64,000 nt of DNA, taken from NCBI RefSeq assembly GCF_022014595.1, contig NZ_CP091740.1, positions 4,266,200 to 4,330,199 on the forward strand. Direction: 5' to 3'. The notes under the pieces are model-generated. The model saw only the letters and a list, made by a program, of their open reading frames with translations. It searched no databases and was not told the DNA's origin. The DNA comes from Solitalea lacus (GTDB lineage: Bacteria; Bacteroidota; Bacteroidia; Sphingobacteriales; Sphingobacteriaceae). Positions 37,527 through 58,441 of the stretch are shown here, piece after piece. Every line of letters begins with the position of its first letter. The stretch's first letter is position 1. Position numbers and translations under genes: made by a program.

Positions 37527-38393
37527 ATGAAAGCAGCCTATTTAATTTTAGTTCATCGTGATTTTGATCATTTAATAAGGATCGTGAATAGCTTGGTTCA
37601 TCCTAATGTTACTTTTTTTATCCATGTAGATAAAAAGATCGAATTCGATGTGGATAATCTCTCTCAAAGAATGCCTCAAAATGCAAATTTCTTTTTTATT
37701 GAGGAACGAATTAATGTTTCCTGGGGTGGATTTAGTTTAACTTATGCATGTTTAGAGCTATTATGGGCAAGTTTACAACACGGTCAATATGATTATTTCA
37801 GTCTTTTGAGTGGTCAGGATTTTCCTTTAAAATCAACCCATGAGATCTTACAATTTTTAGAAGATAATTCAGGAAAAGAATTTATTGAACACTGGGCAAT
37901 ACCAGATCCTCGCTGGGTTGGAAACGGAGGAAGAGATCGTTATGAATATTATTGGCTTGTAGATGAAATTGGAATACAAGCTAGTCAAATTTTTGTGGAA
38001 ATTCAACGTAATGAAAATCAAAAACGAAATCTGCCATTTAACTTAAAACCTTATGGTGGTTCTCAATGGTTTACTATTACTCAAGCATGTGCTCAATATA
38101 TTTACACTTATTTAACCGATCATGAAGAAGTTGTTGATTTCTTTCAATATACTTTAATATCAGACGAGATATTAATTCCAACAATTGTTTTAAATTCTGA
38201 ATTTAAAAGGAATGTTATAAACAATAATCTCCGTTATATTGACTGGGGAACTGGCCCTCATCCAAAAACATTAGGGATGTCCGATATTCAATCACTTTTA
38301 TCAAGCAATTGTCACTTTGCAAGAAAATTTGACCACTTATTTGATGCCGATGTTATTCAAGAATTAGAAACAAGAATTTTTAAAGAGAACTAA
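37527..38393 (+). CDS. glycosyltransferase family 14 (core-2/I-branching type)
   Basis: This 288-residue protein has the GT14 signature: AAYLILVHRDFDHLIRIVNSL at the N-terminus, FFIHVDKK, WGGFSLTYACLELLWASLQ, and DYFSLLSGQDFPLKS, followed by the mid-domain GGSQWFTIT. GT14 enzymes transfer N-acetylglucosamine or xylose to glycans. No signal peptide or membrane helix is present, so it acts in the cytoplasm. It is the only plus-strand gene in a long leftward region and is AT-rich, hinting at separate origin. A role in peptide glycosylation with the neighbouring GT25-like genes is possible but unsupported by operon structure. Confidence 0.82.
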   Translation: MKAAYLILVHRDFDHLIRIVNSLVHPNVTFFIHVDKKIEFDVDNLSQRMPQNANFFFIEERINVSWGGFSLTYACLELLWASLQHGQYDYFSLLSGQDFPLKSTHEILQFLEDNSGKEFIEHWAIPDPRWVGNGGRDRYEYYWLVDEIGIQASQIFVEIQRNENQKRNLPFNLKPYGGSQWFTITQACAQYIYTYLTDHEEVVDFFQYTLISDEILIPTIVLNSEFKRNVINNNLRYIDWGTGPHPKTLGMSDIQSLLSSNCHFARKFDHLFDADVIQELETRIFKEN

Positions 38394-38940
38394 AGAATTA
38401 TATAAGGGTTATATTGATACTTTAAAGCCATGCAGTTAATTCTCTGCTTTAACGCTAAAAAACCTCTCACTTTTCCGAAATTCATGAAATTAAGAATCAT
38501 CCCAGAACTTGGGCTTGTCTAGCTGTTTTTTAAGTTGACGACCCAGTTTTCTTAGGTTTGTCTTTTATATATCTCAACTCATCAATTTTGTTACCGGGTT
38601 CCAAGCAACTCAAATTATTTACAAGCCAATCTAAGCCCTCAGCATTCAATTATAATGGTAAAGCAGAGTTATTTATCCGATATTTTAAAACAATATTGGC
38701 AAATTTTGAATGGTGATTTCAAGAGTGTCGTTAATTGAAGGACTGATCTCAAAAACCCCATATTTAATTGCAGACTTCTCACCCCAACATTCTGTTTACA
38801 ATTAATCTATCAAATATTTCAGAAACAAGAAAGGATTGTTTGTATTGCAAAAGTGAATATACTTGCAAGTAAATTTTTTCTGCAAAAACATAAGTTTTGA
38901 CCCTCCTCCATTACTTACAAATTTAAGAATGTCGAAAACT
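38394..38940. other. 547-base region with no clear gene
   Basis: All six frames are broken by frequent stops. The longest run I can read is minus-strand, around 38540-38650 (NLSCLEPGNKIDELRYIKD), without a start or family I recognise. It may contain a decayed gene. It separates the convergent GT14 and GT25-like genes. Confidence 0.4.
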
Positions 38941-39609
38941 TTAAAATCCAGATCTGTACCTATGATAAACAGTCATGATTATCTCAAAGCGTTTTGCTGT
39001 ATCTTCAAAAAGCTTGGCTACATTGCCAAATGCTTGATTGCTTTTTGTTACATCTGAATAACCGAAGTCTTTTTGGATAGAAATAAAAGGATACAGAGTC
39101 ATTTTGTTACTAGTCATTTCAGAAAACTTTCCATCGGCGGTATCTTCATTGGTAAATTTTTCATCTAAAATAGTTTGAAAGAACTTTTTATAAATTACTA
39201 GAAACTGTGTTCCCCAGAATGAATTAATCCAATATCTGTTTTCTGTGATAGGAACTGCAAGGTTAAAGCCGCTTACACCTCCTGATAAAATATTAATGCC
39301 CTGATCGTGAGCATCGATAATATTCTCCAACAAAAATTGTTTGGAATAACTTGCTGTAAACTCATGATCGTCTTCACAGATAATAATCACGTCCTCGTCA
39401 TTCGCCATGGCCAGTTTCACAATTTTAACGATGCTCTGCCAAAGCCCCACTGCTCCTATCTCATGTTTACAGGCTTCCACTAGCGTGACATCAAACTCTC
39501 TCTTTCCATCAAATTGCTTTTTTATATGGGTTAAACGGTCTACTCTTTCTTTTAGATTTATAATATAAGTAGGTATAGTTATATCATCATAAGTATCAAT
39601 TTGGCTCAT
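38941..39609 (-). CDS. GT25-like glycosyltransferase (second of a tandem pair)
   Basis: This 222-residue protein starts TIPTYIINLKERVDRLTHIKK, the opening of family 25 glycosyltransferases (INLxxRxDR), and has the metal/donor motif IIICEDDHEF near residue 75 (GT25 EDD). It also shares KHEIGAVGLWQSI and the C-terminal PFISIQKDFGYSDVTKS with its neighbours. The product is soluble. It is 3 bases downstream of its paralogue, and both follow a GG-leader peptide gene, so the likely substrate is that peptide or an associated glycan. The family is by motif only. Confidence 0.7.
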   Translation of the reverse strand: MSQIDTYDDITIPTYIINLKERVDRLTHIKKQFDGKREFDVTLVEACKHEIGAVGLWQSIVKIVKLAMANDEDVIIICEDDHEFTASYSKQFLLENIIDAHDQGINILSGGVSGFNLAVPITENRYWINSFWGTQFLVIYKKFFQTILDEKFTNEDTADGKFSEMTSNKMTLYPFISIQKDFGYSDVTKSNQAFGNVAKLFEDTAKRFEIIMTVYHRYRSGF

Positions 39610-39612: not shown

Positions 39613-40266
39613 CTATATTTTTAAATCATAAAAAAATGCTACTTCTTTCAGCTGTGAAAGTTTTTCTGAAGAATCTTTAAATATCTGGGTGACGTAGCCT
39701 TCATTTTCATCATTTTTGCGGGTAACATCCGAATAACCAAATTCTTTCTGTATAGAAATATAGGGATGTATTAACATCTTGTTAGTGGTTAAAGACGATA
39801 TTTTATAATCTGCAGCATCGCCATGCACAAATTCAACTTCCAAAATGATGCTAAAAAACTTCTTGTAGATCACCGTAAACTGCAGACCTGAAAATTTCTC
39901 TACCCAAAACAGATCATGAGAAATTTGAAGAGCAGAATTAAACCAACTTGCCCCTCCTAATAATATATCAGCACCTTTGTCTTTAGCCTCCTTAATATTT
40001 TTGAACAAGGATTCTTTTGTATAATGGTTTGTAAACTGGTGATCATCTTCGCAAATAATGATATACTCTTCATCTCCGTGCAATAAATTTTGTAGAATAT
40101 GCTTTATTGTATTCCACAAACCTATAGCTCCCACTTTATGTTCGCAGGCCTCAACTATATTTAAATCAAATTCTTCTCGTTTTTTAAATTCGTTTAACAA
40201 ATGAACTCTTCGATCAACTCGACGTTTTAAATTGATTGCGAATATTGGGAAGTTTGGCTTTGCCAT
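39613..40266 (-). CDS. GT25-like glycosyltransferase (first of a tandem pair)
   Basis: This 217-residue paralogue of the next gene contains FPIFAINLKRRVDRRVHLL, CEHKVGAIGLWNTIKH, the EDD motif in YIIICEDDHQF near residue 70, GGASWFNSALQIS, and HPYISIQKEFGYSDVTRK at the C-terminus. It lies 107 bases downstream of the GG-leader peptide gene at 40374-40601 and abuts the second glycosyltransferase, so the three are probably one transcript. The same pair of domains occurs as a single fused protein at 51270-52607 after another GG peptide. Confidence 0.72.
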   Translation of the reverse strand: MAKPNFPIFAINLKRRVDRRVHLLNEFKKREEFDLNIVEACEHKVGAIGLWNTIKHILQNLLHGDEEYIIICEDDHQFTNHYTKESLFKNIKEAKDKGADILLGGASWFNSALQISHDLFWVEKFSGLQFTVIYKKFFSIILEVEFVHGDAADYKISSLTTNKMLIHPYISIQKEFGYSDVTRKNDENEGYVTQIFKDSSEKLSQLKEVAFFYDLKI

Positions 40267-40373: not shown

Positions 40374-40601
40374 TCAAGAAAAGCAAGCATTTTCACAAAA
40401 ATTACTTGCCTCAGCCACACAACCTGGTCCACTACCTCCAAACGCCATGCATGTTGACATTCTACTATCATAACAACCAGAATAACATACATACGGATCA
40501 TAACTCCCGCTTCCTGCCCCGCCCAATACATTTTTCAATTGCTCTCTGGTGAACACTTCTGAAGTTTCTAAGTTCAGTTTTTTTAATGTTAACTTTTTCA
40601 T
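40374..40601 (-). CDS. GG-leader peptide precursor 1, six-cysteine core
   Basis: This 75-residue precursor has leader MKKLTLKKLNLETSEVFTRE continuing QLKNVLGG, the double-glycine leader type cleaved by C39 peptidases. The 47-residue core begins AGSGSYDPYVC and contains six cysteines and no Trp or Lys. The leader is almost identical to those at 41525 and 52779, while the cores differ entirely apart from Gly/Ser-rich starts and the Cys count. Two GT25-like genes follow in the same direction. It is probably exported and matured by the C39-ABC transporter at 45382. Confidence 0.85.
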   Translation of the reverse strand: MKKLTLKKLNLETSEVFTREQLKNVLGGAGSGSYDPYVCYSGCYDSRMSTCMAFGGSGPGCVAEASNFCENACFS

Positions 40602-40634
40602 TTTTATTTCTTGTTAAAATTCAAAATAGATTAA

Positions 40635-40696: not shown

Positions 40697-40789
40697 ATAT
40701 TTTATTCATTACATTCTTTTGGAAAGAGGAATTTAGTTAGGGTTCATGAAAGAGGTTGCTAATTATGCAATGAATTAAAAACTTTACAC

Positions 40790-41305
40790 TTACTTCAATG
40801 CTAAATTAATTACCCCAAAAGGAGTAACTCCATGTTTTTTCATAGCCCGTTTATTGTCTATATATTCAATATTCTTAATTTGACTCATTTCTAACTTAGC
40901 TAATGTTGCCTCTTTCTCCTTATTGGTCAATAGTTGTCCGTTGATTGAAATTGGAAGCCGTATATCCAAATTGTATTTATAACTAGCAATAAAATCTGGA
41001 CGAGAATATAATATACTATCAATTTTAGATTCCATATTTGATTTGTCACTCTCTATTATCATTACGGGCTTATCTGTATAAATTCCTAAACGAACTATTT
41101 CTTCTTTATCTGTAATGCATTTTATCCTCTCAAAATTTTTAATGGAATAATTATTCTTAATAATTATTCCATTAAAAATTCGCAAATACGAAGTATCATT
41201 TACTTTGAAGTTAATCAGTATGTTGGATTGAGGCGGTTGGTTAATTTGTGCCCATCCATTTACCCCAATAAAAAAGAATATTATTGTAAAAAGATTTGTT
41301 TTCAT
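40790..41305 (-). CDS. exported protein with TonB-plug-like C-terminal segment
   Basis: This 171-residue protein has a signal peptide (ends GVNGWAQ). The C-terminal part, DIRLPISINGQLLTNKEKEA then IKNIEYIDNKRAMKKHGVTP and GVINLAL, follows the pattern of a receptor plug domain (a named short loop, xxxIxxIEYI, then GxxGVINI), but there is no beta barrel. It lies between two GG-peptide genes and is read in the same direction. It may help the peptides interact with an outer-membrane receptor, or be a free-standing Bacteroidota plug-like protein. Function unknown. Confidence 0.55.
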   Translation of the reverse strand: MKTNLFTIIFFFIGVNGWAQINQPPQSNILINFKVNDTSYLRIFNGIIIKNNYSIKNFERIKCITDKEEIVRLGIYTDKPVMIIESDKSNMESKIDSILYSRPDFIASYKYNLDIRLPISINGQLLTNKEKEATLAKLEMSQIKNIEYIDNKRAMKKHGVTPFGVINLALK

Positions 41306-41524: not shown

Positions 41525-41779
41525 TTATGCATGACCGCATGGTTGTGGTGTAGTTATCGTTGTTGAACATAAACAACGGCCCGGAACTGATGTCCAGCCA
41601 GTACATGTCGTAATCCCGCATCCATCAGTCCCTGAATAAAAATAGGAAGAAATACAATCAGTGTTGCCGCTGCCGCTGCCGCCGCCGCTGCCATCTCCCC
41701 CTAAAACAGTTTTTAATTGTTCTCTGGTAAGTACTTCCGAATTCTCTAGGTTCAGTTTTTTTAATGATAATTTTTTCAT
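41525..41779 (-). CDS. GG-leader peptide precursor 2, six-cysteine core
   Basis: This 84-residue precursor has leader MKKLSLKKLNLENSEVLTRE continuing QLKTVLGG, then a 56-residue core. The core starts with a Gly/Ser stretch (DGSGGGSGSGNTDC), then YFYSGTDGCGITTCTGW and PGRCLCSTTITTPQPCGHA, giving six cysteines. It is the last gene of export cassette A, downstream of the (frameshifted) C39-VKOR-thioredoxin gene. The Ser/Thr-rich linker would suit glycosylation, but no glycosyltransferase gene follows immediately; the nearest are at 38941-40266. Confidence 0.85.
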   Translation of the reverse strand: MKKLSLKKLNLENSEVLTREQLKTVLGGDGSGGGSGSGNTDCISSYFYSGTDGCGITTCTGWTSVPGRCLCSTTITTPQPCGHA

Positions 41780-41803
41780 TTGTTTTTGTTTTTAAATATT
41801 AAT

Positions 41804-41912: not shown

Positions 41913-43528
41913 CTAATTCGCCAAAATATTTTTTATATCGCTTATAGAATATAGTTCAGGCAATTGATGGCCATTAATGAAAAAAGTTGGAGTAAAAGCA
42001 ATTTCAATATCTTTTGTCCATTTATACATTGCTTCCATCCCTTCTTTTTGTTGCTGTAGCTCTCCGTTAAGCGGATACTTTGCGGCAAATGTTTCGTAGA
42101 CCTTTATCGGGGCATTATACCAATCATCCAATGCTTGTCGTATTAGGGTGTTGTCCTTTTTATAAATAGCTACAAGGTGTTTTACGATAGCTTCATGCGT
42201 AAACATAAAAATCATTTGAACTTGTACATCCTCGTATTGATCAATTATTTCATCAATAAGCGGATGAGCTGTTGCACATGGCCCACAGTAAGGATTGCAA
42301 ACCTTTACAATTTTATTTTTAGCATTTGGGTTACCTAATACAATACCCAAGCCTGTTTGGATCATGCGTAATGGCTTTTTGTTTATGCAGTAAGGCCTCA
42401 AAAACAAGCGGGTTATGTTTTAATCGCTGTAATTCAATTTTAGTACGTTTATAATTTTTGGCCTTTTCTATATATGACTTCAAAATAAACCATGCTGTCC
42501 CAATGCCTAAATATGAAAAAACAAATAGGATGATATTGATCCAATTGAGTGATGAAATATTGAGAATATGAAACCTGCCTACTAGTGCTATGATAAATCC
42601 TAATGCTAATAAAGCCTGTACGCCCAGGCATAACCTGCACCACTGTTTGGCGACCCTCCCTTGATAGTATAGTGAATAAACAATGTAGGGCAGTGCTAAC
42701 ACATTCAACCAAGCTAAAAGCGAAATCATGCAGGGGTTAAAGCTACTTAAAGCTAATACAACTGCTCCTCCCGTAAAAATAGATAAAGCCAAGATCACTC
42801 CAGGTGATATCGCCCCAAGCTTTAGCTGCCTTAGATTGAAGAATTGCATTACAGTTTGTCTTTCTTCCACCTGTACATATTTTTTGTAATAAAGGATTAT
42901 TCTTATCAAACTCATACCATAGCAAAAGTGAAGTAATAATAACACCTATAAGTTTGGATGTGAATAAGAGTATTGCAAATAAAGCATTGGTTCCATTAGC
43001 ATAAATGGAATTGATAACGAGACCAAAACTGGCAACGAAAAAAAGCGTTAATAAGAGAGTCGGCGCAATGGATTTTACCAATTGTTCTTTGTAGGCATTT
43101 TTATAATCCTTTTCGCCAGCCTGTTCCAAGGGTTCAGCCAGTAAAACGATACTGGTTGATTTTTCATTAAACTCATCAATTGAAACGGTTTTCCATTTAG
43201 CCGATTCGGGGTCTTGCCAGGTTACGTGGGCAGCATCCAGCTTTTTTACTACAGCAAAATAATTGTGACGCTCGCCTCTTACTTGGGTGATGAAAGGAAG
43301 CGGAAGTTCCTGCATTTTTTCAGGACCAACTTGTATGGCCAGTGTTTCTACTTTCCAGCTTGTTAAAGCATCAGCAACGCTCAACAGACTGGGATAGTCA
43401 GGGTGCTCCTGTAAGGTTTTTTCTAAGGTGCCACTTGTAACTTTTACATTTAATAATTTAAGTAAGCTATCGGCGGCTGTCACACAATTATCTCTTGAAC
43501 TGGTAAAATTTTTAATAACTGAAAGCAT
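41913..43528 (-). pseudogene. C39-VKOR-thioredoxin fusion, copy A, two frameshifts
   Basis: This locus is collinear with the intact gene at 53114-54748 but is split into three frames. The first part encodes the C39-like domain and first VKOR helices up to WSDLGFIYF, where a T5 run (A5 at 42775-42779 on the plus strand) replaces T4 and shifts the frame. The second carries the VKOR core (QWCRLCLGVQ) to KAITHDPN, where AAA (42356-42358) replaces AA. The third carries the thioredoxin-like domain (VCNPYCGPCATAHP). Both lesions are single-base homopolymer expansions, so real decay and sequencing error are both possible. Confidence 0.8.
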
Positions 43529-43590: not shown

Positions 43591-43911
43591 TCAGTCCAAT
43601 ATTTTCGGACTGAAATCAAAAGTGAAAAAAAAAGTTCCCAGCCCTCCTTTGTAGTGCCTTAACTCTTCTTTTTCAACTTCATTATCAAACAGGGTATTAA
43701 CCAGCTTACCATTCCTTGCATAATAATAGCTGTTACGGCTTTTGCAATAGGAAATTGGAAACCCCAGTTCTTTCATCTCCCGTAAGTATTCATTAAGCAT
43801 ACTACGGCTCATATTTAGCTTCAGAGCAAATTCTTCCTGATTACCGGTTGCCTTTCTTCTAATTAATGAATCAATTGATTGCAGTTTTTTAAAATATTTT
43901 ATGATTGCCAT
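43591..43911 (-). CDS. small helix-turn-helix protein, cassette A
   Basis: This 106-residue protein carries a helix-turn-helix at about residues 12-50 (IDSLIRRKATGNQEEFALKL, then NMSRSMLNEYLREMKELGFP), followed by YCKSRNSYYYARNGKLV, a winged-helix-like strand pair. The architecture resembles HTH_11-type regulators without a ligand domain. Its product is identical to the one at 54804-55124. Lying inside the export operon between HlyD and the VKOR fusion, it may be an autoregulator of the cassette. The final codons form a small hairpin (CAGTCC / GGACTG). Confidence 0.65.
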   Translation of the reverse strand: MAIIKYFKKLQSIDSLIRRKATGNQEEFALKLNMSRSMLNEYLREMKELGFPISYCKSRNSYYYARNGKLVNTLFDNEVEKEELRHYKGGLGTFFFTFDFSPKILD

Positions 43912-43953: not shown

Positions 43954-45279
43954 TTATTTGGGATTTGTAGGGTTTGTGCCCGGTTTATTCAATAATTTGT
44001 TAATGGTGAATAGCAATTTATTAATGAGCCTGATTTTCTTAGTAATGATTTCAGCACTACCTGCCATACCGTTTTTAAAGTTTAAGTCGATGTTATTACC
44101 TGTTTTTAAACCAGTACTTAATTTAACTGTGGCCTGATATAGCCCTTCTTTATTGGGTGTTTTTGAAATGAATGCAATACGACCCTTTAATTTTCCATAT
44201 TCTTCATAAGGATAACTGGCCAAACTGATTAATACATCCTGGCCAATTTGAATCTTCCCAAAGTTGTCTTGAGCCAGTTGCAGTTCGCCATAATACCCGG
44301 CATTTTTGGGAGTGATATAAAAAATCTCCTGTCCTGTTTTCACATCCTGGTTTTCATGTAGTACAGTAGGAAATGTTACGCTGCCGGCTATTGAAGCAAT
44401 TAATAAGTATTGTTTCTTCCAGGCATCAGTGCTGCTTATCAGGGTGTTAAGGGCTTGAAGGAAGTTGCTTTTTTGATCGGTAAATTGTTGGTCTAATGCA
44501 AGAATTTCTTGCTGTTTGGTAGCAATGCTTGTATTACTGTTGATCAGGGAGGTTCGCAGATTTTCGAGTGGCAAACGCTTATTTAAATATTTGCTTTGTT
44601 CTTGCTTATATTCCAGCAAGGGCATCACTTTTTCATTAAACAATTGCTCTTTAGCTGAAAAGTCTTTTGATGCGATCTCATAATCGCTCTTTAGCACATT
44701 TTGTTGCGTTAACAGACTTTTGCGCAGTTCATGCAGACTATTTAATTCTTTTTGCAATAAAAATTTCTTCTGAACGTAAGTTCCATTATGTAAATACGAC
44801 TTTAATTGGATAAATGCTGCGCTAAAAGTTTGATAGGCAGATTGCAACTCACCTAACTGTTTATATTGAGCGGGATCATGCTCAATTAGTTTTTCCCATT
44901 TATTAATACGAATCGCTAACCATATATGCTCTAACTCTGATGAAAGTCTTATTACATCTTGATGGCTTGCTGTACTTTCCATATAGGCTAGTATCTCTCC
45001 ACTTTTAACCTGTCTATTTTCGACTGTAAATAATCGGATAAGTTTAGCATCGGTCTTCACTAAAACTGACTTCGGAGTATTATTAGCATTGATGGTTACT
45101 GTTGCATTAATAACATCGGCGTACTTTACAAACCAGCTTACTGAAAAAATAAATAGCAAAACAATAAGAAATACCATTGAACCCCAGCGAACAATGCCTT
45201 TAGGTGCCTGTCCGACAATTTCCTGCATTTCTTCACTATATATTTCGTGTAGTTCTTCGCGTTGTAGTGTTTGTGGCAT
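43954..45279 (-). CDS. HlyD-family membrane fusion protein, cassette A (intact)
   Basis: This 441-residue periplasmic adaptor has a short cytoplasmic N-terminus, one transmembrane helix at about 35-53 (MVFLIVLLFIFSVSWFV), a split biotinyl-lipoyl domain (VLVKTDAKLIRLFTVENRQV; LIASIAGSVTFPTVLHENQ), a long coiled coil at about 115-285 and a beta-barrel domain (ISLASYPYEEYGKLKGRIAF). It links the inner-membrane ABC transporter to an outer-membrane channel; no TolC-type gene is in the window. It lies 102 bases downstream of the transporter. Confidence 0.88.
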   Translation of the reverse strand: MPQTLQREELHEIYSEEMQEIVGQAPKGIVRWGSMVFLIVLLFIFSVSWFVKYADVINATVTINANNTPKSVLVKTDAKLIRLFTVENRQVKSGEILAYMESTASHQDVIRLSSELEHIWLAIRINKWEKLIEHDPAQYKQLGELQSAYQTFSAAFIQLKSYLHNGTYVQKKFLLQKELNSLHELRKSLLTQQNVLKSDYEIASKDFSAKEQLFNEKVMPLLEYKQEQSKYLNKRLPLENLRTSLINSNTSIATKQQEILALDQQFTDQKSNFLQALNTLISSTDAWKKQYLLIASIAGSVTFPTVLHENQDVKTGQEIFYITPKNAGYYGELQLAQDNFGKIQIGQDVLISLASYPYEEYGKLKGRIAFISKTPNKEGLYQATVKLSTGLKTGNNIDLNFKNGMAGSAEIITKKIRLINKLLFTINKLLNKPGTNPTNPK

Positions 45280-45381: not shown

Positions 45382-47562
45382 TTAATTTCCCAATTCCAAC
45401 TGGTTTTTCACCAATTTATAATAATCACCACCTGCAGAAGTAAGTTCTTCATGTGACCCTATTTCGGTAATCATCCCTTTATCGAGCACAATGATTTGAT
45501 CGGCATTTTTAACGGTACTTAGCCGGTGGGCAACCACAACAACTGTTCTTCCCTTAAAAAACTCATCCATATTTTCCATAATTGCTTTTTCATTATTGGC
45601 ATCCAAAGCATTGGTTGCTTCATCAAAAAAGAGGAATTCAGGATCTTTGTATACAGCGCGGGCAATTAATATCCGTTGTCGTTGCCCTTGACTAATACCG
45701 TTTCCTTCAGCTCCTATTTTTGTATTGTAACCCAATGGAAGTGCTTCGATAAACTCCTGAATATTGGCAACTTTAACTGCATGCATCAAACGTTTCATAT
45801 TGAGGTGCTCCTCTCCAACCGCAATATTATTGGCTATTGTATCTGAAAAAATATAACCATCCTGCATCACCACACCACAGTTTCTTCGCCAGTGACGGTG
45901 GCTGATATTGCTTAATCGAGCTTCTCCAACTTTTATCTCACCGCTTTCGGGGTTATAAAACTTTAATAAGAGCTTTAACAGGGTGGTTTTACCACTACCA
46001 CTCATACCCACAATAGCCGTTGTTTTCCCTTCTGGTATGTACATGTTAATATCCTTCAGCACATATTCATTATCATATCCCGGATATTTATAGCTAAGAT
46101 TTTTTATTACAATGCTTTTGTTTTCAGGCAGTACAGTAAGCAAAGGCTTGTCAACAGGTTCTTCATCCTGCATTTGATGTATTTCGTTTATCCGTTCCAA
46201 ACTGATCTTGGCATCTTGCATGGATTGAATAAACTGAATAAACTGTTGCACAGGCGCATTTAATTGCCCAATGATATATTGTACCGCCAACATTCCTCCA
46301 AGGGTCAAATGACCATTTACAACAGCCTGAGCCGATAAAAATGTAATGAGTATATTTTTTGATTGATTAATAAAGAAAGCTCCGCCTTGTTGAAGCTGAT
46401 TGATGCTTAATGATCTTACATTCAATTTAAATAGCTTTGCTTGTATCCGCTCCCACTCCCAACGTTTCAAAGTCTCACAATTGTTCATCTTTATTTCCTG
46501 CATGCCCTGTACTAATTGTATAGTCGTACTTTGATTCCTCGCTGAAATTTCAAAGCGTTTGAAATCTAAATTCCTTCGGGCCCGTAGGAAAAGAAAACCC
46601 CAAGAGAAATAGAAAATACTACCAAGCAAGAAAATCAAGAATATATTCACATCATAGGCAACCATTAAAAAGGTGAAAATGACAAAATTGAATATTGAAA
46701 AAATGATGTTGATGGTGGATCCTATTAAGAAAGATTCTATCCTGCTATGATCACCCAATCGTTGCATAATATCACCGATCATTTTGGTATCAAAATAAGA
46801 AAGCGGCAATCTCATTAGTTTGATCAAAAAATCCGATAGTAATGCAAGATTTATCCGAGTACTTATATGCAATAATATCCAGCTACGCACAAAATCTACT
46901 AATGTAGAACCCACAAACATCATTAACTGCCCTGCCAAAATCAGATAGATGAACTGCATGTCTTTGGTGGCAATCCCAACGTCAACTACAGCTTGCGTTA
47001 AAAAAGGTAAGACCAACTGAAGAATCGTGCCTGCCAATAAGCCCAGCATTAATTGCCCAAACAGTTTTCTGTATTTTAAAAAGTACCCGGATATACTTTT
47101 AAAATTTAAACTTTGCGACAGCTCTTCATGCTCTTCATTAAAACGGTTAGTTGGCTCCATTAATAAGACAATACCTAAATCATCTTTAGAAGTGCCTTGC
47201 CATCCTTGCAAAAACTCCTGCTTGGTGTACTGCATTAACCCTTTAGCCGGATCGCTTACAAATACTTTGTTTCCTTTGATTTTATAAACGACTATGAAAT
47301 GATTCTGCTTCCAATGCACAATGCAGGGAAGGGTGGCTTCACCAAGTAATTGCTCATAGTTGATTTTTACGGCAATGGTTCTAAAACCTATTTGTTCCGA
47401 TGCTTCACTGATGCCTAATAACGAAACACCTTCACGATTTATGCAACATTTTTCTCTTAAATACTGCAGGGGATAATTTCTTCCGTAATATTTTGCAATG
47501 ATCCGGATGCAAGTAGGACCACAGTCCATTGCATCCAATTGTTTAAAAAAGGGAAATGACAC
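45382..47562 (-). CDS. C39 peptidase-containing ABC transporter (PCAT), cassette A
   Basis: This 726-residue transporter cleaves double-glycine leaders and exports the core peptide. The C39 domain (1-135) has the oxyanion Gln and nucleophile Cys in FKQLDAMDCGPTCIRI, the His in WKQNHFIVVYKI and the Asp in VFVSDPAKG. The membrane domain spans about 165-440. The ATPase domain (480-726) has Walker A GMSGSGKTTLL, signature ISQGQRQRI and Walker B EFLFFDEATNALD, with the H-loop in VVVAHRLSTV. All catalytic residues are present, so this copy should be functional. It is the first gene of cassette A. Confidence 0.93.
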   Translation of the reverse strand: MSFPFFKQLDAMDCGPTCIRIIAKYYGRNYPLQYLREKCCINREGVSLLGISEASEQIGFRTIAVKINYEQLLGEATLPCIVHWKQNHFIVVYKIKGNKVFVSDPAKGLMQYTKQEFLQGWQGTSKDDLGIVLLMEPTNRFNEEHEELSQSLNFKSISGYFLKYRKLFGQLMLGLLAGTILQLVLPFLTQAVVDVGIATKDMQFIYLILAGQLMMFVGSTLVDFVRSWILLHISTRINLALLSDFLIKLMRLPLSYFDTKMIGDIMQRLGDHSRIESFLIGSTINIIFSIFNFVIFTFLMVAYDVNIFLIFLLGSIFYFSWGFLFLRARRNLDFKRFEISARNQSTTIQLVQGMQEIKMNNCETLKRWEWERIQAKLFKLNVRSLSINQLQQGGAFFINQSKNILITFLSAQAVVNGHLTLGGMLAVQYIIGQLNAPVQQFIQFIQSMQDAKISLERINEIHQMQDEEPVDKPLLTVLPENKSIVIKNLSYKYPGYDNEYVLKDINMYIPEGKTTAIVGMSGSGKTTLLKLLLKFYNPESGEIKVGEARLSNISHRHWRRNCGVVMQDGYIFSDTIANNIAVGEEHLNMKRLMHAVKVANIQEFIEALPLGYNTKIGAEGNGISQGQRQRILIARAVYKDPEFLFFDEATNALDANNEKAIMENMDEFFKGRTVVVVAHRLSTVKNADQIIVLDKGMITEIGSHEELTSAGGDYYKLVKNQLELGN

Positions 47563-51269: not shown

Positions 51270-52607
51270 TTATTTACAATAACAAGAATAGGCCATACTA
51301 ATATTTTGGAGCATCTTGCTACATTCGTTAAACATTTTGGTTGACAAACCTTCTTTATTATTAAAAACTGCCGTAACATCGGAATAACCAAAATCTTTTT
51401 GAATAGAAATAAAAGGGTGAAGCGCCAACTTATTTGCTGTTAGTTCAGAAAGTTTAACGTCTGCTAGCACGTCATCGTTGTAAGGTGAGTCTAAAACTTT
51501 TTGGAAAAAAGAACGGTATAGTATTATAAACTGTGTACATCTTGCAATATCCACCCAAAACCTGTTTTCAGCAACCATTACCGCATTATTAAATATAGCT
51601 ATACCTCCGTTTAAATAATCGGTTCTTTGGCTGTGGGCTTCCAAAACATTTTTCAAGAAATAATCTCTGTTGTAATACGGTGTGAATTGATGATCATCTT
51701 CACAGATAACAATTACATCATCATCATTATCGATAGCCATTCTGACTATTTTCCTGATACTTTGCCAAAGACCAACAGCACCTATTTCGTGTCGGCATGC
51801 CTCAACAAACGTTATATCAAATTCAGTCCGTCCCTCAAACTGTCCTTTGATATGAGCCAACCGATCTGTACGTTCAGGTAAATTGAGGATATAGGTTGGG
51901 ATAGCTACCGGCTCTTCCAGAATGACTGGATCCCAAATACTTTGATGTTCTCTGTAAAAGGTACGGATATTGTTCAGGTTATTCAATAGTTGTTTGGAAT
52001 TTAAATAGGCCTGAACTATGTTGCTTTGCTTCCCATTGTCATCTTCGAAATCATATTGAATATCCTCTTGTATGGAAATAAGGGGATTAATTATAAATTT
52101 ACTTTCAGATATTGAGGATAGCAATTCGTGAACTGATTGAGCTCTACCTAATTCCGCACCTAAAATCTTTTCATAGCTCCGCTGAAAGATTACCATGAAA
52201 TGTATTCCTAAAAATTTTTCAACCCAATAGAGGTTTTCAGATACTTGAAACGGTGACCTAAACCGCGTCAACCCTCCTAACAAATAATCTGCGTTCTTTT
52301 TATCGGCCTCGCTAATGATGGAAAGAAAGTTGTCATATGAAAAGTCGTTAGTAAAATAATGGGACGTATTGCACAACAAGAAAAATTGGCGTTCTTCCTG
52401 TTGTGCAGAGAGAACAGCGCTTTTGATAGCTTGTAACAAATCTATCTCTGGTCCTCTTCCTCCCTCAGCATTAACAAGTTTTAAAGAAAATACTGAGTAT
52501 TTAGCAAATCGTTCCACAAGCCCAACATATTCTCCATCGGCATTCTCACTATTAAAGGCATACACGGAAATTTTATCAAACTTAATAGATTTACTATTTA
52601 ATGTCAT
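51270..52607 (-). CDS. tandem GT25-like glycosyltransferase with one degenerate domain
   Basis: This 445-residue protein is two GT25-like domains in a row. The C-terminal domain (about 230-445) is complete: AIPTYILNLPERTDRLAHIK, CRHEIGAVGLWQSI, the EDD motif in IVICEDDHQF, and HPFISIQKDFGYSDVTAV. The N-terminal domain (1-225) shares the fold landmarks (DYLLGGLTRFRSPF; NPLISIQEDIQYDF) but reads FFLLCNTSHYFTND where the EDD motif should be and has lost the INLxxRxDR start, so it is probably inactive. The gene is 171 bases downstream of GG peptide 3, presumably co-transcribed, and mirrors the two separate genes at 38941-40266. Confidence 0.72.
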   Translation of the reverse strand: MTLNSKSIKFDKISVYAFNSENADGEYVGLVERFAKYSVFSLKLVNAEGGRGPEIDLLQAIKSAVLSAQQEERQFFLLCNTSHYFTNDFSYDNFLSIISEADKKNADYLLGGLTRFRSPFQVSENLYWVEKFLGIHFMVIFQRSYEKILGAELGRAQSVHELLSSISESKFIINPLISIQEDIQYDFEDDNGKQSNIVQAYLNSKQLLNNLNNIRTFYREHQSIWDPVILEEPVAIPTYILNLPERTDRLAHIKGQFEGRTEFDITFVEACRHEIGAVGLWQSIRKIVRMAIDNDDDVIVICEDDHQFTPYYNRDYFLKNVLEAHSQRTDYLNGGIAIFNNAVMVAENRFWVDIARCTQFIILYRSFFQKVLDSPYNDDVLADVKLSELTANKLALHPFISIQKDFGYSDVTAVFNNKEGLSTKMFNECSKMLQNISMAYSCYCK

Positions 52608-52778: not shown

Positions 52779-52973
52779 CTAAACGCAGGTACCTTGGCTA
52801 CACACACAACCCGTTGCACAGTTCCCATCAACTTTACATGTTCCTCCGCAACTGCTACCGCTACCGGTGGTTCCGCTTCCGCTTCCGCCTCCGCCCATAA
52901 CTGCCTTCAATTGCTCTCTGGTAAGAACTTCTGAACTTTCTACGTTCAATTTTTTCAATGTTAACTTTTTCAT
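52779..52973 (-). CDS. GG-leader peptide precursor 3, six-cysteine core
   Basis: This 64-residue precursor has leader MKKLTLKKLNVESSEVLTRE continuing QLKAVMGG. The 36-residue core starts with a long Gly/Ser/Thr stretch (GGSGSGTTGSGSSC) and then packs cysteines densely: CGGTCKVDGNCATGCVCSQG ending TCV, six in all, in a knottin- or EGF-like spacing. It is the last peptide gene of cassette B and is followed by the tandem GT25-like gene. Of the three cores it has the clearest disulfide-miniprotein look. Confidence 0.87.
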   Translation of the reverse strand: MKKLTLKKLNVESSEVLTREQLKAVMGGGGSGSGTTGSGSSCGGTCKVDGNCATGCVCSQGTCV

Positions 52974-53113: not shown

Positions 53114-54748
53114 CTAATGGGCCAAAATATTTTTTAGATCCTGAATGGAGTAAAATTCCGGCAGTTGATAACCATTGATGAAAAAAGTTGGAGTGAAAGC
53201 AATTTCCATTTTGTTACTCCATTCATGCATAGCCTGCAATCTTGTTCCTTGTTTTTGCAATTCGCCATTCATGAGGTACTTTTTAGCAAAAGTCTCGTAA
53301 TCCTTTTTGGGGTTATTGTACCAATCATCCATTGCTTGCTGAATTAATTGGGCATCCTGTTTTTCATTTAATGCCAACAGATGTTTTACAGGTTGAGATC
53401 TTCTATCATTTTCATCCTCAGATGCCGTAAATATTATCTGCACTTGAACATCCTCATTTAAATGTATGAGTTCATCTATTATTGGATGTGCACTAGCGCA
53501 GGGCCCACAGTAAGGATTACAAACTTTTATAATTTTCATTTTAGCATTTGGATTGCCTAATACTATCCCTAATCCAGTTGGGTCATGAGTAATGGCTTTT
53601 TGTTTGTGCAACAAAGCTTCAAATAGTTGAGGATTGTACTTTAAACGCTTGAATTCGAGCTGAGTTCGCTTATAGTTTTTTGCCTTTACTATATATGACT
53701 TCAAGGTAAACCATGCGGCTGCAGTACCTAAAAACGAAAAAACAATGGCTGCAACATTGGACCAATTAAGCAATGCCGCTTCGAAAAAAAGAAATCTGCC
53801 ACCTGATGCAATTATAAATTCCAATGCCAGTAAAGCTTGCACTCCAAGGCACAACCTGCACCATTGTTTGGCAATTTTCCCCTGATAATAAAGTGAGTAA
53901 ACTATATAAGGCAGTGCCAATAAATTAAACCATGCTAAAGATGAAAGCATGCTCTTGTTAAGATTGCTTAATGCCAATACAACAACTCCTCCTGTAAAAT
54001 AGATAAATCCGAGATCACTCCAGGTAATCTCGCCCCATGCTTTAGCCGCTTTAGATTGCAGAATTGCATTACAGTTTGTTTTGCTTCCACCTGTACATAT
54101 TTTTTGCAATAAGGGATTGTTTTTATCGAATTCATACCATAGCAAAAGTGAAGTAATTAATACTCCAACAAGTTTTGTGGTGAATAAGAGCGCCGGAAAT
54201 AGGGCATTGGCTCCGGTAGTATAAAAGGAATTAATTACCAAGCCAAAACTGTAAACAGTAAGAAGTATTAAGAGGAGAGCTGGAGCAATGGATTTTACCA
54301 ATTGGCTTTTATAAGCGCTTTTATAATCTTTTTCGCCTGCCTGTTCCAAAGGTTCAGCCAATAATACGATGCCTGTCGATTTTTTATTAAACTCATCAAA
54401 AGGTATGGTTTTCCATTTAGCTGATGCAGGATCTTGCCAAGTTATTTTGCCTTCATCCAGTTTGTTTACTACCGCAAAATAATTATGACGATCTCCTTTT
54501 ACTTGGGTCATAAAAGGAAGCGGGAGTTCCTGCATTTTTTCGGGAGCAACCTTTATCGCCAGCGTTTCAATTTTCCAGCTTGTTAAAGCATCGGTAACGC
54601 TCAATAGACTGGGATAGTTAGGATGTTCCTGTAAGGTTTTTTCTAAAGTTATACCCGTCACCTTTACTTTTAATAATTGCAGCAGACTATCAGTAGCGGT
54701 TACACAATTCTCTCTCGATCCGGTAAAATTTTTAATGACTGAAAGCAT
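53114..54748 (-). CDS. C39-like/VKOR/thioredoxin fusion, cassette B (intact)
   Basis: This 544-residue membrane protein joins three modules. Residues 1-135 form a C39-like domain with Cys in SRENCVTATDSLL, His in KGDRHNYFAVV and Asp in TWQDPAS; the usual upstream Gln is not evident, so peptidase activity is uncertain. Residues ~150-345 are a vitamin-K-epoxide-reductase (VKOR) domain with several helices, the loop cysteines in ICTGGSKTNCNAIL and the CxxC in QWCRLCLGVQ. Residues ~380-544 are a thioredoxin-like domain with KVCNPYCGPCASAHP. VKOR plus thioredoxin oxidises dithiols to disulfides on the periplasmic side, which fits six-cysteine peptides. Confidence 0.88.
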   Translation of the reverse strand: MLSVIKNFTGSRENCVTATDSLLQLLKVKVTGITLEKTLQEHPNYPSLLSVTDALTSWKIETLAIKVAPEKMQELPLPFMTQVKGDRHNYFAVVNKLDEGKITWQDPASAKWKTIPFDEFNKKSTGIVLLAEPLEQAGEKDYKSAYKSQLVKSIAPALLLILLTVYSFGLVINSFYTTGANALFPALLFTTKLVGVLITSLLLWYEFDKNNPLLQKICTGGSKTNCNAILQSKAAKAWGEITWSDLGFIYFTGGVVVLALSNLNKSMLSSLAWFNLLALPYIVYSLYYQGKIAKQWCRLCLGVQALLALEFIIASGGRFLFFEAALLNWSNVAAIVFSFLGTAAAWFTLKSYIVKAKNYKRTQLEFKRLKYNPQLFEALLHKQKAITHDPTGLGIVLGNPNAKMKIIKVCNPYCGPCASAHPIIDELIHLNEDVQVQIIFTASEDENDRRSQPVKHLLALNEKQDAQLIQQAMDDWYNNPKKDYETFAKKYLMNGELQKQGTRLQAMHEWSNKMEIAFTPTFFINGYQLPEFYSIQDLKNILAH

Positions 54749-54803: not shown

Positions 54804-55124
54804 TCAGTCCAATATTTTCGGACTGAAATCAAAAGTGAAAAAAAAAGTTCCCAGCCCTCCTTTGTAGTGCCTTAACTCTTCTTTTTCAACTTCATTATCA
54901 AACAGGGTATTAACCAGCTTACCATTCCTTGCATAATAATAGCTGTTACGGCTTTTGCAATAGGAAATTGGAAACCCCAGTTCTTTCATCTCCCGTAAGT
55001 ATTCATTAAGCATACTACGGCTCATATTTAGCTTCAGAGCAAATTCTTCCTGATTACCGGTTGCCTTTCTTCTAATTAATGAATCAATTGATTGCAGTTT
55101 TTTAAAATATTTTATGATTGCCAT
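54804..55124 (-). CDS. small helix-turn-helix protein, cassette B
   Basis: This 106-residue protein is identical to the cassette A product at 43591-43911, with the same flanking DNA to its right. It keeps the helix-turn-helix (NQEEFALKLNMSRSMLNEYL) and the Tyr-rich wing. Full identity while the adjacent VKOR-fusion genes differ widely suggests recent gene conversion or strong constraint. A local regulatory role is inferred from the fold and operon position only. Confidence 0.65.
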   Translation of the reverse strand: MAIIKYFKKLQSIDSLIRRKATGNQEEFALKLNMSRSMLNEYLREMKELGFPISYCKSRNSYYYARNGKLVNTLFDNEVEKEELRHYKGGLGTFFFTFDFSPKILD

Positions 55125-55166: not shown

Positions 55167-56182
55167 TTATTTGGGATTTGTAGGGTTTGTGCCCGGTTTA
55201 TTCAATAATTTGTTAATGGTGAATAGCAATTTATTAATGAGCCTGATTTTCTTAGTAATGATTTCAGCACTACCTGCCATACCGTTTTTAAAGTTTAAGT
55301 CGATGTTATTACCTGTTTTTAAACCAGTAGTTAATTTAACTGTGGCCTGATATAGCCCTTCTTTATTGGGTGTTTTTGAAATGAATGCAATACGACCCTT
55401 TAATTTTCCATATTCTTCATAAGGATAACTGGCCAAACTGATTAATACATCCTGGCCAATTTGAATCTTCCCAAAGTTGTCTTGAGCCAGTTGCAGTTCG
55501 CCATAATACCCGGCATTTTTGGGAGTGATATAAAAAATCTCCTGTCCTGTTTTCACATCCTGGTTTTCATGTAGTACAGTAGGAAATGTTACGCTGCCGG
55601 CTATTGAAGCAATTAATAAGTATTGTTTCTTCCAGGCATCAGTGCTGCTTATCAGGGTGTTAAGGGCTTGAAGGAAGTTGCTTTTTTGATCGGTAAATTG
55701 TTGATCTAGTGCTAGAATTTCTTGCTGCTTGGCTACAATGCTCGTATTATTATTAATCAGGGAAGTTCGCAGATTTTCAAGTGGTAAACGCTTATTTAAA
55801 TATTTACTTTGCTCTTGCTTATATTCAAGCAAGGGTATTACTTTTTCATTAAACAATTGCTCTTTAACTGAAAAGTCCTTTGAAGCGATTTCATAGTCGC
55901 TGTTTAGCACATTTTGTTGTGCTAACAGGCTTTTGCGTAGTTCATGCAGACTATTTAATTCTTTTTGCAATAAAAATTTCTTCTGCACGTAAGTTCCATT
56001 ATGCAAATACGACTTTAATTGGATAAATGCGGCGCTAAATGTTTGGTAGGCAGATTGCAACTCTCCTAACTGCTTATATTGAGCGGGATCATGCTCAATT
56101 AGTTTTTCCCATTTATTAATACGAATCACATTTCTTCACTATATATTTCGTGTAGTTCTTCGCGTTGTAGTGTTTGTGGCAT
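55167..56182 (-). pseudogene. HlyD-family protein, cassette B, N-terminal anchor deleted
   Basis: The original start is still visible at 56180-56182 (MPQTLQREELHEIYSEEM) but runs directly into TGA. Compared with 43954-45279, a 310-bp deletion with its junction at 56127-56129 removes the transmembrane helix and first lipoyl half and shifts the frame. The remaining frame (about 320 codons from a GTG near 56129) keeps the coiled coil and beta-barrel parts, but a product would have no membrane anchor or export signal. Confidence 0.85.
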
Positions 56183-56284
56183 ATTCTAGTTGTCCGTTGT
56201 CCGTTGTCAGTTGTTAGTTTAAAATAGGTGTACATTAAGGGAGGAGCCAGTTATTGGTCTTTGTGCCTTTGTCTTTGTTCTCTG

Positions 56285-58441
56285 TTAATTTCCCAATTCC
56301 AACTGGTTTTTCACCAATTTATAATAATCACCACCTGCAGAAGTAAGTTCTTCATGTGACCCTATTTCGGTAATCATCCCTTTATCGAGCACAATGATTT
56401 GATCGGCATTTTTAACGGTACTTAGCCGGTGGGCAACCACAACAACTGTTCTTCCCTTAAAAAACTCATCCATATTTTCCATAATTGCTTTTTCATTATT
56501 GGCATCCAAAGCATTGGTTGCTTCATCAAAAAAGAGGAATTCAGGATCTTTGTATACAGCGCGGGCAATTAATATCCGTTGTCGTTGCCCTTGACTAATA
56601 CCGTTTCCTTCAGCTCCTATTTTTGTATTGTAACCCAATGGAAGTGCTTCGATAAACTCCTGAATATTGGCAACTTTAACTGCATGCATCAAACGTTTCA
56701 TATTGAGGTGCTCCTCTCCAACCGCAATATTATTGGCTATTGTATCTGAAAAAATATAACCATCCTGCATCACCACACCACAGTTTCTTCGCCAGTGACG
56801 GTGGCTGATATTGCTTAATCGAGCTTCTCCAACTTTTATCTCACCGCTTTCGGGGTTATAAAACTTTAATAAGAGCTTTAACAGGGTGGTTTTACCACTA
56901 CCACTCATACCCACAATAGCCGTTGTTTTCCCTTCTGGTATGTACATGTTAATATCCTTCAGCACATATTCATTATCATATCCCGGATATTTATAGCTAA
57001 GATTTTTTATTACAATGCTTTTGTTTTCAGGCAGTACAGTAAGCAAAGGCTTGTCAACAGGTTCTTCATCCTGCATTTGATGTATTTCGTTTATCCGTTC
57101 CAAACTGATCTTGGCATCTTGCATGGATTGAATAAACTGAATAAACTGTTGCACAGGCGCATTTAATTGCCCAATGATATATTGTACCGCCAACATTCCT
57201 CCAAGGGTCAAATGACCATTTACAACAGCCTGAGCCGATAAAAATGTAATGAGTATATTTTTTGATTGATTAATAAAGAAAGCTCCGCCTTGTTGAAGCT
57301 GATTGATGCTTAATGATCTTACATTCAATTTAAATAGCTTTGCTTGTATCCGCTCCCACTCCCAACGTTTCAAAGTCTCACAATTGTTCATCTTTATTTC
57401 CTGCATGCCCTGTACTAATTGTATAGTCGTACTTTGATTCCTCGCTGAAATTTCAAAGCGTTTGAAATCTAAATTCCTTCGGGCCCGTAGGAAAAGAAAA
57501 CCCCAAGAGAAATAGAAAATACTACCAAGCAAGAAAATCAAGAATATATTCACATCATAGGCAACCATTAAAAAGGTGAAAATGACAAAATTGAATATTG
57601 AAAAAATGATGTTGATGGTGGATCCTGTTAAGAAAGATTCTATCCTGCTATGATCACCCAATCGTTGCATAATATCACCGATCATTTTGGTATCAAAATA
57701 AGAAAGCGGCAATCTCATTAGTTTGATCAAAAAATCCGATAGTAATGCAAGATTTATCCGAGTACTTATATGCAATAATATCCAGCTACGCACAAAATCT
57801 ACTAATGTAGAACCCACAAACATCATTAACTGCCCTGCCAAAATCAGATAGATGAACTGCATGTCTTTGGTGGCAATGCCAACATCTACTACAGCTTGCG
57901 TTAAAAAGGGTAATATCAACTGAAGTATTGTGCCTGCTAACAGGCCCAGCATTAATTGTCCAAACAGTTTTCTGTATTTTAAAAAGTACCCGGATATACT
58001 TTTAAAATTTAAACTTTGCGACAGCTCTTCATGCTCTTCATTAAAACGGTTAGTTGGCTCCATTAATAAGACAATACCTAAATCATCTTTAGAAGTGCCT
58101 TGCCATCCTTGCAAAAACTCCTGCTTGGTGTACTGCATTAACCCTTTAGCCGGATCGCTTACAAATACTTTGTTTCCTTTGATTTTATAAACGACTATGA
58201 AATGGTTTTGCTTCCAATGCACAATGCAGGGCAAGGTTGCTTCACTAAGCAATTGCTTATAGTTGATTTTTACTGCAATGGTTCTAAAACCTATTTGCTC
58301 TGATGCTTCACTGATACCAAGTAAGGAAACTCCTTCGCGGTTAATACAACATTTTTCTCTTAAATACTGCAGGGGATAATTTCGTCCGTAATATTTTGCA
58401 ATGATCCGGATGCAAGTAGGACCACAGTCCATTGCATCCAA
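56285..58441 (-). CDS. C39 peptidase-containing ABC transporter, cassette B, start codon lost
   Basis: From codon 9 onward this is nearly identical to 45382-47562, keeping the C39 Cys (DAMDCGPTCIRI), His and Asp, the membrane domain and a full ATPase (GMSGSGKTTLL, ISQGQRQRI, FFDEATNALD). The 5' end is missing: at 58441 the reading frame meets repeat R3, and 183 bases present in copy A (start codon, oxyanion Gln of the C39 domain, leader) are deleted. Only a TTG at 58439-58441 or the internal ATG could start it. Expression or peptidase function is doubtful, so it may be a pseudogene. Confidence 0.75.
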   Translation of the reverse strand: MDAMDCGPTCIRIIAKYYGRNYPLQYLREKCCINREGVSLLGISEASEQIGFRTIAVKINYKQLLSEATLPCIVHWKQNHFIVVYKIKGNKVFVSDPAKGLMQYTKQEFLQGWQGTSKDDLGIVLLMEPTNRFNEEHEELSQSLNFKSISGYFLKYRKLFGQLMLGLLAGTILQLILPFLTQAVVDVGIATKDMQFIYLILAGQLMMFVGSTLVDFVRSWILLHISTRINLALLSDFLIKLMRLPLSYFDTKMIGDIMQRLGDHSRIESFLTGSTINIIFSIFNFVIFTFLMVAYDVNIFLIFLLGSIFYFSWGFLFLRARRNLDFKRFEISARNQSTTIQLVQGMQEIKMNNCETLKRWEWERIQAKLFKLNVRSLSINQLQQGGAFFINQSKNILITFLSAQAVVNGHLTLGGMLAVQYIIGQLNAPVQQFIQFIQSMQDAKISLERINEIHQMQDEEPVDKPLLTVLPENKSIVIKNLSYKYPGYDNEYVLKDINMYIPEGKTTAIVGMSGSGKTTLLKLLLKFYNPESGEIKVGEARLSNISHRHWRRNCGVVMQDGYIFSDTIANNIAVGEEHLNMKRLMHAVKVANIQEFIEALPLGYNTKIGAEGNGISQGQRQRILIARAVYKDPEFLFFDEATNALDANNEKAIMENMDEFFKGRTVVVVAHRLSTVKNADQIIVLDKGMITEIGSHEELTSAGGDYYKLVKNQLELGN

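What the first reader, a model, noticed from the sequence alone, without database searches (positions are those of the whole stretch)
37527..58441. Candidate secreted six-cysteine peptide system: GG-leader precursors, C39-ABC exporter, VKOR-thioredoxin oxidase and GT25-like glycosyltransferases
Three precursors share an almost identical leader ending in Gly-Gly but have different cores, each with six cysteines after a Gly/Ser-rich linker. They lie with a C39-ABC exporter, a HlyD adaptor, a C39-VKOR-thioredoxin fusion and, downstream of two of them, GT25-like genes. C39-ABC proteins cleaving GG leaders and VKOR forming disulfides are established. That the VKOR fusion folds these peptides and that GT25-like enzymes glycosylate them is inference. 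Known glycocins use other glycosyltransferase families, so a GT25-type system would be new as far as I know.
Basis: partly seen in the sequence, partly recalled or inferred. Interest (0 to 1): 0.9.

Follow-up and report, generated by a model that had tools for sequence, protein, structure and literature searches.

The report
Sugar-decorated, disulfide-rich peptide export system
This stretch of a Bacteroidota genome encodes small secreted, cysteine-rich peptides together with the machinery to cut, export and oxidise them, and comparison across many genomes suggests that an unusual pair of collagen-glycosyltransferase-like enzymes puts sugars on a glycine-serine tail of these peptides, which would be a new kind of bacterial glycopeptide.

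Summary
Three short genes share a GG leader and each has a six-Cys core behind a Gly-Ser linker. They sit with a C39-ABC exporter, HlyD, a C39-like–VKOR–thioredoxin fusion and GT25-like genes. The module recurs across Bacteroidota: of 67 matching precursors in 68 loci, 51 have exactly six Cys and six have eight. Part of the interpretation gains strong comparative support. VKOR loci with the GT25-like pair have Gly-Ser in the precursor linker in 52/58 cases, against 9/66 in VKOR loci without it (p=2e-18). A related GS measure survives genus stratification (p=1.5e-5), and GS goes the same way in about 6 of 8 tree-independent contrasts. GT25 loci without VKOR can carry Cys-free, GS-rich GG precursors. 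GT25+ loci also gather other sugar genes (42/86 vs 1/62). The predicted enzyme structure (pLDDT 93) best matches human collagen galactosyltransferase COLGALT1 (GT25). Corrections: the fusion's C39 domain lacks the catalytic Cys, so it is probably a leader-binding domain; the module is duplicated with complementary damage. Best reading: cytosolic O-glycosylation of linker serines, then C39 cleavage and export, then periplasmic disulfide formation. It works like a glycocin but is not one: the glycosyltransferase is not SunS-type. Biological activity is untested.

The parts
37527..38393 (+). GT14-type (Core-2/I-branching, PF02485) glycosyltransferase; possible second sugar enzyme. It follows the GT25 pair on the same strand in some other loci (e.g. 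L011, L017)
   Evidence: Pfam E=6e-34; homologues in 11 of 86 GT25+ loci, 0 of 62 GT25- loci
38941..39609 (-). GT25-like domain protein, second member of the pair (C-type); CEDDH motif intact
   Evidence: AF2 pLDDT 93, pTM 0.90; COLGALT1 Z 18.4
39613..40266 (-). GT25-like domain protein, first member of the pair (N-type); CEDDH motif intact
   Evidence: PF01755 24.3 bits, cut-off 24; alignment
40374..40601 (-). precursor 1: GG leader, GS linker, six-Cys core
40790..41305 (-). 171-aa protein with a signal-peptide-like N-terminus, no family match; possible immunity protein (inference)
   Evidence: no homologue in 148 loci
41525..41779 (-). precursor 2: GG leader, GS linker, six-Cys core
41913..43528 (-). 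copy A of the C39-like-VKOR-thioredoxin fusion, split into three frames (pseudogene or sequencing error)
   Evidence: three overlapping ORFs; tblastn in frames -2, -3 and -1
43591..43911 (-). 106-aa helix-turn-helix protein, copy A
   Evidence: weak HTH matches; homologues in 8 loci, all GT25+
43954..45279 (-). HlyD-family adaptor, copy A, intact
   Evidence: TIGR01843 E=1e-27
45382..47562 (-). C39 peptidase-ABC exporter, copy A, intact, with Cys and the FFKQ stretch before it
   Evidence: PF03412 E=1.9e-37; TIGR01846/TIGR01193; sequence
51270..52607 (-). fused GT25-like pair; N half lacks the EDD motif (CNTSH), C half intact (CEDDH)
   Evidence: model pLDDT 89, aligned to both GT domains of COLGALT1
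52779..52973 (-). precursor 3: GG leader, GS-rich linker, six-Cys core with knottin-like spacing 3-5-3-1-4
53114..54748 (-). C39-like (no conserved catalytic Cys)-VKOR-thioredoxin fusion, copy B, intact
   Evidence: Pfam; Cys 218, 226, 297, 300, 414 and 417 invariant in 108 homologues
54804..55124 (-). helix-turn-helix protein, copy B
   Evidence: same 106-aa sequence as copy A
55167..56129 (-). HlyD-family adaptor, copy B, N-terminal part deleted
56285..58441 (-). C39-ABC exporter, copy B, 5' end truncated at the duplication border (lacks the FFKQ stretch)

Best explanation
The locus makes secreted, glycosylated, disulfide-bonded peptides. (1) GG-leader precursors are made in the cytosol. (2) The tandem GT25-like pair, in which I see no signal or membrane segment, transfers sugar to serines of the Gly-Ser motif just after the GG site; other sugar enzymes, where present, extend the glycan (here perhaps the GT14 enzyme). 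(3) The C39 domain of the ABC exporter cuts after GG and exports the core with HlyD. (4) The VKOR-thioredoxin fusion, probably holding the leader or precursor through its inactive C39-like domain, oxidises the six cysteines to three disulfides in the periplasm. The hypervariable cores suggest antagonistic (bacteriocin-like) peptides. Shown here: gene anatomy, recurrence, the GT25-GS association, the predicted fold, invariant redox Cys and the missing catalytic Cys. Inferred: the transfer reaction, the sugar, the order of steps and the activity.
For: Recurrence: 68 loci in named Bacteroidota genomes; 51 of 67 precursors have exactly six Cys, six have eight. GT25-GS link: GS in linker 52/58 vs 9/66 (p=1.7e-18); per locus 32/37 vs 8/45; within one leader class 51/55 vs 2/8. 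The related measure 'GS in the first ten residues' holds after genus stratification (CMH p=1.5e-5), and GS density is 0.20 per residue in linkers vs 0.014 elsewhere. On the VKOR tree GT25 changed at least 8 times on well-supported branches, and GS went the same way in about 6.1 of 8 independent pairs, the other way in 0.5. GT25 loci without VKOR include Cys-free GG precursors with 8-12 GS against 3-5 in shuffles. Sugar genes (GT14, GT2, GT10, GLF, Mannosyl_trans3, LicD/GT25) occur in 42/86 vs 1/62 loci (p=1e-11). Enzyme: pLDDT 93; best matches COLGALT1 (Z 18.4, rmsd 3.4, 178 aligned), mimivirus R655, POMGNT1; none of 36 fused pairs has lost the EDD motif in both halves. Redox Cys 100% conserved.
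Against: No biochemical data. The GT25- comparison set comes from one family (Sphingobacteriaceae-type relatives of the window genome), and precursors were found with a leader pattern. The sign test on supported branches alone is marginal (median p 0.06). A few GT25+ precursors lack a linker GS (L043; L005 has GSG at its C-terminus instead), and some GT25- precursors have GS (L155, whose locus carries a Mannosyl_trans3 gene instead). Antagonistic activity and immunity are not shown. 'GS in the first ten' counts a core that starts with S after GG as a hit.
Confidence: 0.68

Rival explanations
1. The peptides are secreted and disulfide-bonded as described, but the GT25-like pair and other sugar genes modify something else (for example cell-surface glycan, for self-protection), and the GS linker is only a flexible spacer inherited with that lineage of clusters.
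For: GT25 was named for LPS enzymes (PF01755); GS linkers are classic flexible spacers; cluster lineages share both traits, and the sign test on supported branches is marginal.
Against: GS follows GT25 within genera (CMH p=1.5e-5), within one leader class and in about 6 of 8 independent contrasts. Cys-free precursors in other GT25 loci are GS-rich. The profile of these enzymes hits none of ten loci with PF01755 matches. The nearest solved structures include protein and peptide glycosyltransferases.
Confidence: 0.2
2. The GT25-like proteins have a glycosyltransferase fold but act as chaperones or use another nucleotide-based chemistry on the peptide.
For: One half of many fused pairs has lost the EDD motif (18 of 36), as in the window's own fused protein.
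Against: At least one half always keeps EDD; other glycosyltransferases and a UDP-galactopyranose mutase cluster in GT25+ loci.
Confidence: 0.08
3. The locus is decaying and makes nothing: both copies of the module carry broken genes.
For: VKOR copy A is frameshifted, and HlyD and ABC copy B are truncated.
Against: Between the two copies every component has one intact version; all three precursors keep leader, linker and six Cys; the ABC copies are 98.5% identical over 2313 nt.
Confidence: 0.07

Closest known systems
Glycocins (sublancin, glycocin F, enterocin F4-9, thermoglycocin)
   Same: Small Cys-rich peptides with a leader, C39-ABC export, disulfides and a dedicated glycosyltransferase; thermoglycocin has three disulfides and GlcNAc on Ser and Cys (PMC12457901).
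   Different: Glycocins are from Firmicutes, with SunS-type glycosyltransferases and thioredoxin-like proteins; here a tandem GT25-like pair, a VKOR-thioredoxin fusion, Bacteroidota, and a putative target in the linker next to the cleavage site rather than in the core.
Bacteroidetocins (PMC6671954)
   Same: Bacteroidota, GG leader cut by a peptidase-ABC exporter, four Cys in bacteroidetocins A and B, thiol oxidoreductase in the locus.
   Different: No glycosyltransferase is mentioned in that paper; different core family; no GS linker described.
COLGALT1 / GLT25D1 (collagen hydroxylysine galactosyltransferase, GT25)
   Same: Best solved-structure match; two tandem GT-A domains in one protein; acts on a Gly-rich polypeptide (general knowledge).
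   Different: Eukaryotic, acts on hydroxylysine; sequence identity 17%; here the two domains may be separate genes, and Ser is the proposed acceptor.
RiPP clusters of Bacteroidales (PMC10352776)
   Same: GG precursors with C39-ABC exporters; some clusters hold a glycosyltransferase.
   Different: Centred on radical-SAM and LanC enzymes; 'GlyS' there is the S-glycosyltransferase type; the searched terms for VKOR and thioredoxin do not occur in it.

Membership tests
Glycocin | SunS/ThuS-type peptide glycosyltransferase | tested here: not met
   No NCBIfam match of that kind in any of 31 GT members; fold and Pfam point to GT25
Glycocin | Precursor leader cut by a C39-ABC exporter | tested here: met
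   GG leader and C39-ABC present; cleavage itself not observed
Glycocin | Glycosylated, disulfide-bonded mature peptide | not testable with these tools
   Needs mass spectrometry
GT25 glycosyltransferase family | GT-A fold with GT25 nearest relatives | tested here: met
   AF2 pLDDT 93; COLGALT1 Z 18.4, top of 998 chains
GT25 glycosyltransferase family | Pfam PF01755 above its cut-off | tested here: inconclusive
   24.3 bits (cut-off 24) for one window protein, 21 for the others; 25 of 31 members match at E<=0.01
LPS-type GT25 | Close sequence relation to LPS enzymes | tested here: not met
   Profile of these enzymes matches no ORF in ten loci with PF01755 matches
C39 peptidase (in the VKOR fusion) | Catalytic Cys | tested here: not met
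   No conserved Cys at that position among 108 homologues; A/G/L/I most frequent
VKOR-thioredoxin oxidase | Loop Cys pair, membrane CxxC and thioredoxin CxxC | tested here: met
   Cys 218, 226, 297, 300, 414 and 417 invariant in 108 homologues
TIGR04149 GG leader family | Score above NCBIfam cut-off (25 bits) | tested here: not met
   Best 20.2 bits for precursor 2
Bacteroidetocin | Core peptide of the bacteroidetocin family | not tested
   Judged different from the published description only

The most novel reading that the evidence does not exclude
A Bacteroidota-wide class of secreted peptides in which a COLGALT1-like tandem GT25 pair O-glycosylates serines of a Gly-Ser linker at the N-terminus of the mature peptide, coupled to VKOR-thioredoxin disulfide formation in one branch and to Cys-free GS-rich peptides in another: the first bacterial peptide-modifying GT25 system known to me.
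Probability: 0.6. Interest if true: 0.86.

Novelty: new variant of a known kind. Interest (0 to 1): 0.74.

Why it matters
Only a handful of glycosylated bacteriocins are known, and those in the papers read here come from Gram-positive bacteria and use one type of glycosyltransferase. This system would extend peptide glycosylation to Bacteroidota with a different enzyme family, give a simple predicted acceptor motif (Gly-Ser beside the cleavage site), offer small bacterial relatives of the human collagen galactosyltransferase for mechanistic work, and provide dozens of clusters for finding new antimicrobial or signalling peptides.

Tried and rejected
Rfam found no RNA family in the window. A conserved stretch of about 75 nt upstream of the three precursors looked like a shared regulatory element; only one of the three copies fitted the pattern used, and one two-mismatch match elsewhere is at control level, so it was not pursued. 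PADLOC gave no defence match. My filter for picking full LPS-type GT25 proteins for a joint tree found none, so separation from them rests on the profile search, not on a tree. The idea that the GT14 gene is a Ser-Gly xylosyltransferase-like enzyme rests on family knowledge only (GT14 includes protein O-xylosyltransferases) and was not tested. Membrane topology of the fusion was left open: hydropathy gives five or six segments, depending on the cut-off, which decides on which side the C39-like domain lies. A literature search for GT25-type bacteriocin glycosylation and C39-VKOR fusions found nothing; the library lacks most subscription papers and bioRxiv.
Full report
What is there. The window lies in a single-contig 4.4 Mb genome. 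Between 37.5 and 58.4 kb, nearly all on the minus strand, are three short genes with an almost identical 28-residue leader ending in Gly-Gly, a Gly/Ser-rich linker and a core with exactly six cysteines. These are the only three matches to the leader in the genome. Around them is a duplicated module: C39-ABC exporter, HlyD adaptor, a small HTH protein and a C39-like-VKOR-thioredoxin fusion. The two copies are 98.5% identical over 2313 nt and 84% over about 3.3 kb and are damaged in complementary ways. Copy A has an intact exporter and adaptor but a VKOR gene split into three frames. Copy B has the intact VKOR fusion, an adaptor without its N-terminal part, and an exporter ORF lacking its first residues. 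One working set therefore remains. Downstream of precursors 1 and 3 are four GT25-like domains, as two genes and as one fused gene, and a GT14-type gene (PF02485) stands at the edge.

Recurrence. A search of 84,980 species genomes with the GT domains gave 68 loci; every record title names a member of Bacteroidota or a Bacteroidota MAG (Chitinophaga, Pedobacter, Mucilaginibacter, Niastella, Sphingobacterium, Flavobacterium, Tannerella, Hoylesella, Dyadobacter and others). In them 67 GG precursors were recognised; 51 have exactly six Cys and six have eight; a C39-ABC gene is present in 50 loci, HlyD in 43 and VKOR in 37. Among 301 genomes of the family, 98 hold the VKOR fusion and 35 the GT domains, and the two go together (28 of 35 against 70 of 266, p=1e-9). 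The domains come in pairs, as two genes or fused, and a supported set of 46 rows in the tree separates one domain type from the other (98).

The new result: Gly-Ser follows the glycosyltransferase. To test whether the GT pair has to do with the peptides, I fetched about 60 VKOR loci without it. They encode the same kind of even-Cys precursor, but the linker differs. GS occurs in the linker of 52 of 58 precursors from GT25+ loci and 9 of 66 from GT25- loci (p=1.7e-18); per locus 32/37 against 8/45; within one leader class 51/55 against 2/8. A related measure (GS within ten residues of GG) holds after stratification by genus (p=1.5e-5), and GS is fifteen times denser in the linker than in the rest of the core. 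On a tree of the VKOR proteins the GT label changes at least eight times on supported branches; GS goes the same way in about six of eight independent pairs and the other way in 0.5 (median p 0.06, so this single test is only marginal). One genome shows it directly: G223 has a GT25+ locus with TGSGIGNC (L173) and a GT25- locus whose precursor begins DGPTTPDPGDP (L174, which does carry a GGSGG further on). GT25 loci without VKOR include long Cys-free GG precursors with 8 to 12 GS against 3 to 5 in shuffles (L029, L034, L036, L071). GS thus follows the GT enzymes, not the cysteines.

The enzymes. AlphaFold2 gives pLDDT 93 and pTM 0.90 for 38941-39609. The best solved matches are human COLGALT1, a GT25 enzyme (Z 18.4, rmsd 3.4, 178 aligned), then mimivirus R655, beta-1,4-galactosyltransferases and POMGNT1. 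The fused protein (pLDDT 89) aligns across both GT domains of COLGALT1 over 346 residues, but with an rmsd of 21 A, so the domain order matches and the relative placement does not. Of 36 fused pairs, 18 keep EDD in both halves, 14 only in the first and 4 only in the second; none has lost both. Pfam GT25 scores are near the cut-off. The profile of these enzymes does not hit any of ten loci with PF01755 matches, so they are not close kin of those, presumably LPS-type, enzymes. Forty-two of 86 GT25+ loci, but one of 62 GT25- loci, carry a further gene of the sugar-related clusters GT14, GT2, GT10, UDP-galactopyranose mutase, Mannosyl_trans3 or LicD/GT25 (p=1e-11). The one exception, L155, has a Mannosyl_trans3 gene and a GSG linker.

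The oxidase. In 108 fusion proteins the loop cysteines (218, 226), the membrane CxxC (297, 300) and the thioredoxin CxxC (414, 417) are invariant, while the position of the C39 catalytic Cys is variable (A, G, L or I). The C39-like domain is therefore probably a leader-binding module, as is known for inactive C39-like domains of HlyB-type exporters (general knowledge). A separate DUF4369-thioredoxin protein occurs in 59 of 148 loci but not in this window.

Most likely mechanism. Precursors are glycosylated in the cytosol on linker serines, cut after GG and exported, then oxidised in the periplasm. The cores are hypervariable (88 spacing patterns among six-Cys cores), which suits antagonistic peptides; precursor 3 has knottin-like spacing. 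No activity, immunity or outer-membrane channel was shown. How far this differs from known systems: glycocins (PMC12457901) work alike but use another glycosyltransferase type, and bacteroidetocins (PMC6671954) share leader, exporter and thiol oxidoreductase; that paper mentions no glycosyltransferase. I found no report of a GT25-type peptide glycosylation system in bacteria, within a library that lacks most subscription papers.

Noticed in passing
window 41755-41925, 52950-53120, 40580-40800: A conserved stretch (GTGCACCT...TGAAA..CCAAAGC...CTCACGGGCTAAAACGAGAG) lies upstream of all three precursors; a shared promoter or leader RNA element is possible.
   Followed up: partly
window 58706-58907: A tandem repeat with a period of about 21 bases (8.8 copies; consensus CTTTTACCAATACGAAAAGTA) just beyond the truncated exporter copy, near the duplication border.
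   Followed up: no
window 59008-62943: A 1311-aa predicted secreted protein that looks like two glycoside hydrolases joined (GH43-like then GH35-like, by reading only).
   Followed up: no
window 48129-50945: An outer-membrane beta-barrel protein (PF14905) lies between the two module copies; relatives occur in 12 of 148 loci without preference for GT25. It might be the outer-membrane route or unrelated.
   Followed up: partly
L171:3452-5161, L137:11162-11809: VKOR loci without GT25 often carry other glycosyltransferase families (PF02709 cluster in 9 of 62, PF04488 cluster in 2 of 62), so glycosylation of this peptide class may be wider, with other motifs.
   Followed up: partly
L031:15464-17335: A run of seven tandem GG precursors (leader ..EEQLSHFMGG, core ending CCS...CC) near a GT25 pair; looks like a different peptide family.
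   Followed up: no
L189:6774-8295: A radical-SAM-like gene and a GG precursor with DGSG stand next to a diverged GT25 pair, suggesting combination with other modifying enzymes.
   Followed up: no
L065:8201-10636, L069:8162-10609: GT25-like domain inside an 811-815 aa protein next to an ABC protein: an unexplored fusion.
   Followed up: no
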